41,646 nucleotides of DNA from Deltaproteobacteria bacterium (GTDB lineage: Bacteria; JAEEML01): contig JAEEML010000018.1 of the NCBI GenBank assembly GCA_016283195.1, positions 1 through 41,646 on the forward strand. Reading direction: 5' to 3'. A program made the position numbers and the translations under genes. This document shows positions 7,289 through 7,445 of this stretch, one piece after another. Every line of letters begins with the position of its first letter. Position 1 is the first letter of the stretch. Below the pieces are notes generated by a model that was not told where the DNA came from, searched no databases, and saw nothing but the letters and a program-made list of their open reading frames with translations.

Positions 7289-7325
7289 AAAAAAAAGACC
7301 CGCAAGGCTGGGAGTTCCTCACGGG
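7289..7325 (-). terminator. Rho-independent terminator
   Basis: Reverse strand CCCGTGAGG-AACTCCCAG-CCTTGCGGG (9 bp counting two G-U pairs) then TCTTTTTTTT. Confidence 0.8.
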
Positions 7326-7420
7326 CCTAAAACCAAAGCTGAGTCATCCTTGCTCAGCCATCGCAGAGAGAGCGGATTGCCAGGGGACGCCTTTCTTTTA
7401 ATGTTAAGCCCCGCTCCGCT
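7289..7420 (-). ncRNA. Putative sigma-54-dependent small RNA (~132 nt), no family assigned
   Basis: Predicted +1 (12 nt below the -12 element) falls at ~7419-7420, where a stem begins (AGCGGA..GGGG / CCCC..TCCGCT). Second hairpin GCTGAG-CAAGGATGA-CTCAGC (7358-7338). Third is a 9-bp terminator hairpin followed by U-rich tail. No convincing ORF in the interval. Confidence 0.62.
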
Positions 7421-7429
7421 ATTTTTTAA

Positions 7430-7445
7430 TGCAAGTAGCGTGCCA
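7430..7445 (-). promoter_or_regulatory. Sigma-54 (RpoN) -24/-12 promoter
   Basis: Reverse strand TGGCACGCTACTTGCA matches the sigma-54 consensus TGGCACG-N4-TTGCA with correct spacing. Confidence 0.78.

What the first reader, a model, noticed from the sequence alone, without database searches (positions are those of the whole stretch)
7289..7445. Putative sigma-54-dependent, three-stem small RNA in the GT2-nrdJ intergenic gap
Seen: reverse strand has TGGCACGCTACTTGCA (sigma-54 -24/-12). Counting 12 nt gives a start at ~7419, where a stem begins (AGCGGA..GGGG/CCCC..TCCGCT, 7420-7371). A second hairpin and a 9-bp terminator with a U tract follow, giving ~132 nt with no convincing ORF. Promoter, fold and terminator fit together as one transcription unit. 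Known: sigma-54-driven sRNAs include Qrr of Vibrio and Pxr of Myxococcus, both multi-stem RNAs of roughly this size class. Inference: a regulatory sRNA under bEBP control. No homology to Qrr or Pxr is claimed.
Basis: partly seen in the sequence, partly recalled or inferred. Interest (0 to 1): 0.85.

Follow-up and report, generated by a model that had tools for sequence, protein, structure and literature searches.

The report
Sigma-54-driven small RNA with enhancer site
A gap between two bacterial genes very probably encodes a roughly 130-nucleotide non-coding RNA, switched on by the sigma-54 system through an enhancer site it shares with cell-surface lipoprotein genes; such RNAs are known elsewhere, but this one has no detectable relative and its target is unknown.

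Summary
The letters are as reported. On the minus strand, a perfect sigma-54 site (7445-7430) is followed 12 nt later by a 131-nt unit (7419-7289) ending in a 12-bp terminator hairpin plus eight U. The promoter is more than chance: the genome has rpoN, seven clear sigma-54 activators, and 20 exact sites (about 6 expected; 0 in a reversed control), many just upstream of genes. Its core class GACA-N4-TGTC occurs only three times in 429 kb sampled, each time 103-122 bp upstream of a sigma-54 site; the other two precede a lipoprotein and a 44-aa membrane peptide. Elsewhere the same palindrome precedes more lipoproteins, lpxC and a lipid kinase. So the RNA probably belongs to an envelope regulon. 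Stem 2 and the terminator fold better than shuffles; stem 1 does not, so 'three-stem' is only partly supported. No Rfam family, paralogue or homologue was found (393 genomes, covariance model). Hfq and CsrA were not detected. Its targets are unknown; the CUCCC terminator loop could bind Shine-Dalgarno sequences, but co-regulated lipoprotein leaders were not enriched. Best reading: a new member of a known kind, the sigma-54-dependent sRNAs (GlmY, Qrr, Pxr).

The parts
7539..7556 (-). Enhancer-like inverted repeat TACGACAAATATGTCATA (core GACAAATATGTC 7542-7553), centre about -128.5 from +1; putative bEBP upstream activating sequence
   Evidence: the GACA-N4-TGTC class occurs 3 times in 428,759 sampled bases, each time 103-122 bp upstream of a sigma-54 site; flanks fit the YGACAAAAATGTCR consensus of nine exact genomic sites, with one central difference
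7550..7567 (-). Second overlapping pair of half-sites, TGTCACTTCATTATGACA (TGTC-N10-GACA), which fits the QseF consensus TGTN12ACA
   Evidence: only this sigma-54 promoter among those tested has it; 3 occurrences in 429 kb; consensus from PMC6075780. A lead only, found after the fact
7430..7445 (-). Sigma-54 promoter TGGCACGCTACTTGCA (-24/-12)
7289..7419 (-). Putative non-coding RNA, 131 nt, predicted +1 at G7419
   Evidence: Position from the promoter rule (12 nt below the -12 C), fold, terminator, no internal ORF
7372..7419 (-). Stem 1 region (AGCGGA/UCCGCU plus GGGG/CCCC, A-rich loop)
   Evidence: Predicted; not more stable than shuffles (z -0.5)
7365..7371 (-). Single-stranded linker UCUCUCU
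   Evidence: Predicted mostly unpaired
7337..7359 (-). Hairpin 2 (GGCUGAGC AAGG AUGACUCAGCU; loop region CAAGGAUGA)
   Evidence: z -2.75, 1% of shuffles as stable
7296..7328 (-). Intrinsic terminator hairpin, 12 bp, loop AACUCCCAG (7316-7308)
   Evidence: z -3.5; ranks 4 of 59 terminator-like structures in 429 kb
7289..7296 (-). U tract of the terminator (8 U)
7594..10383 (-). nrdJ, class II B12-dependent ribonucleotide reductase; upstream neighbour on the same strand
6216..7232 (+). GT2 glycosyltransferase; convergent downstream neighbour

Best explanation
7289-7445 is a stand-alone sigma-54 transcription unit for a roughly 131-nt non-coding RNA. An activated bEBP bound at 7539-7556 (and possibly 7550-7567) would contact RpoN-RNA polymerase at 7445-7430 by DNA looping, start transcription at about 7419, and stop at the strong intrinsic terminator at 7328-7289. 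The same palindrome precedes several surface lipoproteins, a 44-aa membrane peptide, lpxC and a lipid kinase, so the RNA is most likely induced together with a cell-envelope regulon. It would act as its post-transcriptional arm, much as GlmY does for QseF in E. coli. The most likely action is base-pairing, without Hfq, between the CU-rich linker and the CUCCC terminator loop and Shine-Dalgarno regions of target mRNAs, reducing their translation. Supported by sequence statistics: promoter, enhancer-like site, terminator, lack of an ORF. Inferred: transcription itself, the identity of the bEBP, the inducing signal, pairing and targets.
For: RpoN is present, as are seven full-strength Sigma54_activat proteins. 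There are 20 exact sigma-54 sites against 0 in the control, and many lie 30-150 bp before a Shine-Dalgarno plus start codon: pilA (L097), comM (L086), Rpn nucleases, lipoproteins. For the palindrome, GACAAAAATGTC is expected 0.3 times per genome and found 9 times, and all nine have Y and R flanks. Four of the nine have a sigma-54 site 78-167 bp downstream, as does the sRNA variant. Position rotation in the 429-kb sample gives 3 observed against 0.05 expected, fraction 0.0004. All three GACA-N4-TGTC in the sample are at sigma-54 promoters. Downstream genes are lipoproteins (two with Fib_succ_major), LpxC and DAGK_cat. The terminator ranks 4 of 59.
Against: There is no transcript evidence. There is no homologue, so no covariation or conservation test. 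Stem 1 and the total fold are not better than shuffles. The sRNA's palindrome differs from the genomic consensus at one central base, and sites at up to one mismatch are in total at background frequency (43 against 49 in the control). Two double palindromes (C28, C167) and one single one (C109) have no sigma-54 site close by, so the factor might not be a bEBP everywhere. Pairing with the co-regulated lipoprotein leaders was not better than with random genes. The choice of palindrome was made after looking at 20 promoters, so its statistics are partly post hoc.
Confidence: 0.66

Rival explanations
1. The region is only the 3' UTR and terminator of nrdJ; the sigma-54-like site is accidental. The hairpin at 7328-7289 ends nrdJ mRNA, and any small RNA would be a processed 3' fragment.
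For: Same strand as nrdJ. The pattern scan finds no intrinsic terminator between the nrdJ stop (7594) and the promoter, so nrdJ transcripts may read into the unit and use its terminator.
Against: A perfect sigma-54 site is expected 0.0003 times in this gap on one strand. It has a palindrome at an enhancer distance whose class, in the sample, occurs only at sigma-54 promoters. A terminator 300 nt past the stop needs neither.
Confidence: 0.12
2. The sigma-54 transcript is real, but its role is local: an RNA or transcription event antisense to the 3' end of the convergent glycosyltransferase gene when the terminator leaks, or interference with nrdJ or GT2 transcription.
For: The gene is convergent with GT2, whose 3' end lies 57 nt beyond the terminator.
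Against: The terminator is among the strongest in 429 kb, and the 131-nt unit stops before GT2.
Confidence: 0.08
3. The transcript is a messenger for a very short peptide.
For: Small co-regulated peptides exist (44 aa in L111); AUG triplets in the RNA give 5- and 6-codon frames (read).
Against: No ORF of 20 aa or more lies inside, and no Shine-Dalgarno is well placed before the tiny frames (and direct reading).
Confidence: 0.05
4. A protein-titrating RNA (CsrB/RsmZ-like): the loop motif CAAGGAUGA and two other GGA triplets would sequester CsrA.
For: The hairpin-2 loop matches the core CARGGAUG of CsrA sites (own knowledge); hairpin 2 is significant.
Against: No CsrA (PF02599) is detected in the genome, while the control finds it in E. 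coli, B. subtilis and T. maritima.
Confidence: 0.03

Closest known systems
GlmY (E. coli), sigma-54/QseF-dependent sRNA of cell-envelope homeostasis
   Same: sRNA from a sigma-54 promoter with upstream activating sequences; co-regulated with envelope functions. The site 7567-7550 fits the published QseF consensus TGTN12ACA (PMC6075780).
   Different: No Rfam match to any family. No bEBP passes the GlrR/QseF model cut-off (best 373 bits against 763). Not next to a kinase-regulator operon; the main palindrome is GACA-N4-TGTC.
Pxr (Myxococcus), sigma-54-dependent three-stem sRNA
   Same: About 100-130 nt, predicted stem-loops, upstream sigma-54 promoter (PMC5568312).
   Different: Pxr lies between the bEBP gene nla19 and an NADH dehydrogenase gene; this unit lies between nrdJ and GT2. 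No sequence relation found.
Qrr1-5 (Vibrio)
   Same: Sigma-54 promoter, intergenic, terminator (own knowledge; bEBP LuxO).
   Different: Single copy here; no Rfam match; no Hfq detected; no bEBP reaches the LuxO cut-off (best 378 against 800 bits).
LhrC (Listeria), envelope-stress sRNA with UCCC loops
   Same: CU-rich single-stranded stretch and CUCCC in the terminator loop; Hfq not required for regulation by LhrC (PMC4132741), Hfq not detected here.
   Different: LhrC is multicopy, depends on LisRK rather than sigma-54 and has three UCCC motifs; here pairing with lipoprotein leaders was not enriched.

Membership tests
Sigma-54-dependent sRNA (functional class) | -24/-12 promoter of the GG-N10-GC type directly before the RNA | tested here: met
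   7445-7430; 20 exact genome sites against 0 control
Sigma-54-dependent sRNA (functional class) | RpoN and bEBPs in the genome | tested here: met
Sigma-54-dependent sRNA (functional class) | bEBP-type upstream activating sequence | tested here: met
   Palindrome 7539-7556 shared with other sigma-54 promoters; binding itself untested
Sigma-54-dependent sRNA (functional class) | A transcript made only with RpoN | not testable with these tools
   No expression data
Sigma-54-dependent sRNA (functional class) | Non-coding, own intrinsic terminator | tested here: met
Qrr | Match to an Rfam model | tested here: not met
   No family reaches its gathering score; the weak hits are other families
Qrr | LuxO activator and Hfq | tested here: not met
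   LuxO model best 378 of 800 bits; Hfq not detected
Pxr | Locus next to nla19 and NADH dehydrogenase gene | tested here: not met
   Neighbours are nrdJ and GT2; Pxr locus from PMC5568312
Pxr | Conserved SL1/SL2 sequence | not tested
   Pxr sequence not aligned; no Rfam hit of any kind
GlmY | QseF-type sites TGTN12ACA | tested here: inconclusive
   One site at 7567-7550 fits; GlmY has three
GlmY | Sequence/structure family | tested here: not met
   No Rfam match
GlmY | QseF/GlrR activator | tested here: not met
   Best 373 of 763 bits
CsrA-titrating RNA | CsrA in the genome | tested here: not met
UCCC-loop (LhrC-like) mechanism | Loop pairs with target Shine-Dalgarno regions | tested here: inconclusive
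   CUCCC in the terminator loop; 16 sigma-54/palindrome genes not enriched over 255 random gene starts

The most novel reading that the evidence does not exclude
In a bacterial phylum with one held genome and no detectable Hfq or CsrA, a sigma-54 enhancer regulon for the cell envelope (lipoproteins, lpxC, lipid kinase) carries its own sRNA, which represses translation through an anti-Shine-Dalgarno terminator loop: a GlmY-like circuit that arose independently and uses a mechanism otherwise described in low-GC bacteria.
Probability: 0.2. Interest if true: 0.65.

Novelty: new member of a known kind. Interest (0 to 1): 0.45.

Why it matters
If real, it extends sigma-54-dependent sRNAs to a poorly sampled phylum and places one in an envelope regulon defined by a 14-bp palindrome. 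That gives a concrete regulon to test (sRNA, lipoproteins, lpxC, lipid kinase) and suggests that coupling an sRNA to a sigma-54 envelope response, as in QseF/GlmY, has arisen more than once and can work without Hfq.

Tried and rejected
Rfam at gathering score and at relaxed E-value: nothing credible. BLASTN in 59 genomes: only chance words. A covariance model built from the single sequence, run in 393 genomes: own copy only; two hits at E 0.004 and 0.01 per genome, one inside a coding-like sequence and one a generic terminator, neither with a sigma-54 site, so chance. nrdJ relatives in named genomes: NrdJ only up to 64% identical over its best segment, no related RNA found in the eight of these loci searched. 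CsrA sponge: no CsrA. Hfq-dependent pairing: no Hfq. Pairing with regulon leaders: not enriched; the two best sigma-54 genes (L091 pilus-type, 2% of background as low; L086 comM, 12%) have GGGAG Shine-Dalgarnos and are not significant among 16 tests. GA-repeat 5' UTR of L085/L079 against the CUCUCUCU linker: simple sequence, not pursued. The PilR consensus was considered and dropped. One viral-contig scan failed on the server and would have had little bearing.

Full report
Observation. The sequence at 7289-7445 is as described. The minus strand carries TGGCACGCTACTTGCA at 7445-7430; the C of the -12 GC is 7431, which puts +1 at G7419. The RNA 7419-7289 (131 nt) is predicted to fold into a 5' stem (7419-7372), a second hairpin (7359-7337) and a 12-bp terminator hairpin (7328-7296) with loop AACUCCCAG and eight U. 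No open frame of 20 aa or more lies inside it.

Chance. A pattern search of the window finds one exact site. The genome in which the window lies (3.22 Mb, 190 contigs) has 20 exact TGGCACN5TTGCW sites and none for the reversed pattern; with one mismatch the counts are 176 against 33. A second-order Markov model expects 5.8 per genome and 0.0003 in the gap on one strand. Many exact sites lie 30-150 bp before a Shine-Dalgarno and start codon, including pilA (L097), comM (L086), Rpn-type proteins and lipoproteins; a few lie in coding sequence and are probably chance. RpoN is present, as are seven strong Sigma54_activat proteins. The promoter is therefore very probably real.

Terminator and fold. 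Among 59 terminator-like structures in 429 kb sampled, this one ranks fourth. The terminator (z -3.5) and hairpin 2 (z -2.75) beat dinucleotide shuffles; stem 1 (z -0.5) and the total (z -0.9) do not. 'Three stems' is thus well supported for the terminator, likely for hairpin 2 and open for stem 1.

Enhancer. Upstream of the promoter lies TACGACAAATATGTCATA (7539-7556), centred 128.5 bp above +1. Its relative GACAAAAATGTC occurs nine times in the genome where 0.3 are expected, always within YGACAAAAATGTCR. Four of the nine have a sigma-54 site 78-167 bp downstream: C68 (44-aa membrane peptide), C69 and C136 (lipoproteins), C174 (lpxC, with a two-mismatch promoter). Two double sites precede lipoproteins on C28 and C167 and one lies between ftsZ and a lipid kinase on C109, all without a visible sigma-54 site. 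In 428,759 sampled bases the class GACA-N4-TGTC occurs three times and all three are at sigma-54 promoters, this one included; rotating positions gives 0.05 expected against 3 observed (fraction 0.0004). Two caveats: the site here differs from the consensus at one central base, and sites at up to one mismatch are in total at background level; and the motif was chosen after looking at the promoters, so the statistics are partly post hoc. An overlapping TGTC-N10-GACA (7567-7550) fits the published QseF consensus TGTN12ACA (PMC6075780), but no bEBP of the genome reaches the GlrR/QseF model cut-off.

Interpretation. The simplest account is a stand-alone sigma-54 unit making a non-coding RNA, induced together with an envelope regulon. 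nrdJ lies upstream on the same strand and no terminator was found between it and the unit, so read-through is possible and the terminator may serve both. What the RNA does is inferred. Hfq and CsrA were not detected, which argues against Hfq-dependent pairing and a CsrA sponge. The CUCCC terminator loop and the UCUCUCU linker resemble the CU-rich pairing sites of LhrC, an envelope-stress sRNA that does not need Hfq for regulation (PMC4132741). A pairing test on 16 sigma-54/palindrome genes against 255 random gene starts showed no enrichment, so targets remain unknown.

Relatives. The genome is the only one held of its phylum. RecO has only three close relatives in 5.8 billion proteins (96, 73 and 63%). 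NrdJ relatives in named genomes are at most 64% identical over the best segment and come from many phyla. Neither BLAST nor a single-sequence covariance model found a homologue or paralogue. Conservation and covariation, the natural tests, could not be done.

Comparison. Sigma-54-dependent sRNAs are a known kind: GlmY (QseF), Pxr (PMC5568312), and, from own knowledge, Qrr (LuxO) and CrcZ/CrcY. The unit works like these, and most like GlmY in its apparent envelope regulon, but it meets the sequence or locus tests of none of them. I file it as a new member of a known functional kind, not of any sequence family.

Noticed in passing
L078, L080, L086, L087, L088, L089, L096 (own genome), 75-165 bp upstream of sigma-54 sites: Arrays of 3-7 direct repeats TGACACACTTT / TGACACACC, about 10 or 11 bp (or multiples) apart, precede sigma-54 promoters of comM, Rpn-type proteins and two related small proteins: a second, helically phased enhancer type that may mark a recombination/DNA-uptake regulon.
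   Followed up: partly
L109 (C28), L112 (C69), L117 (C167), 5' leaders: Three lipoprotein genes of the palindrome group share a leader hairpin GTCGC...GCGAC directly before the Shine-Dalgarno sequence: a possible RNA control element.
   Followed up: no
L119 / L161 (C174:3384-5303): lpxC, the committed step of lipid A synthesis, has a GACAAAAATGTC site and a sigma-54-like site (TGGTATGTTTTTTGCA) upstream, with a sigma-54 response regulator gene about 4 kb away.
   Followed up: partly
L085 (C68) and L079 (C19): Two near-identical lipoprotein genes have identical sigma-54 sites followed at the start region by GA repeats of different length (about 28 against 8 nt), suggestive of slippage-based variation.
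   Followed up: no
L095 (C182:13736-13751): An exact sigma-54 site with no obvious gene start within about 240 bp; possibly another non-coding unit.
   Followed up: no
window 2063-4500 (-): PEP mutase with a cytidylyltransferase domain next to a TPP decarboxylase-type enzyme: a phosphonate biosynthesis pair within a surface-polysaccharide region.
   Followed up: no
own genome G000: No Hfq, no CsrA and no 16S rRNA were detected in the assembly, and it is the only genome of its phylum held.
   Followed up: partly
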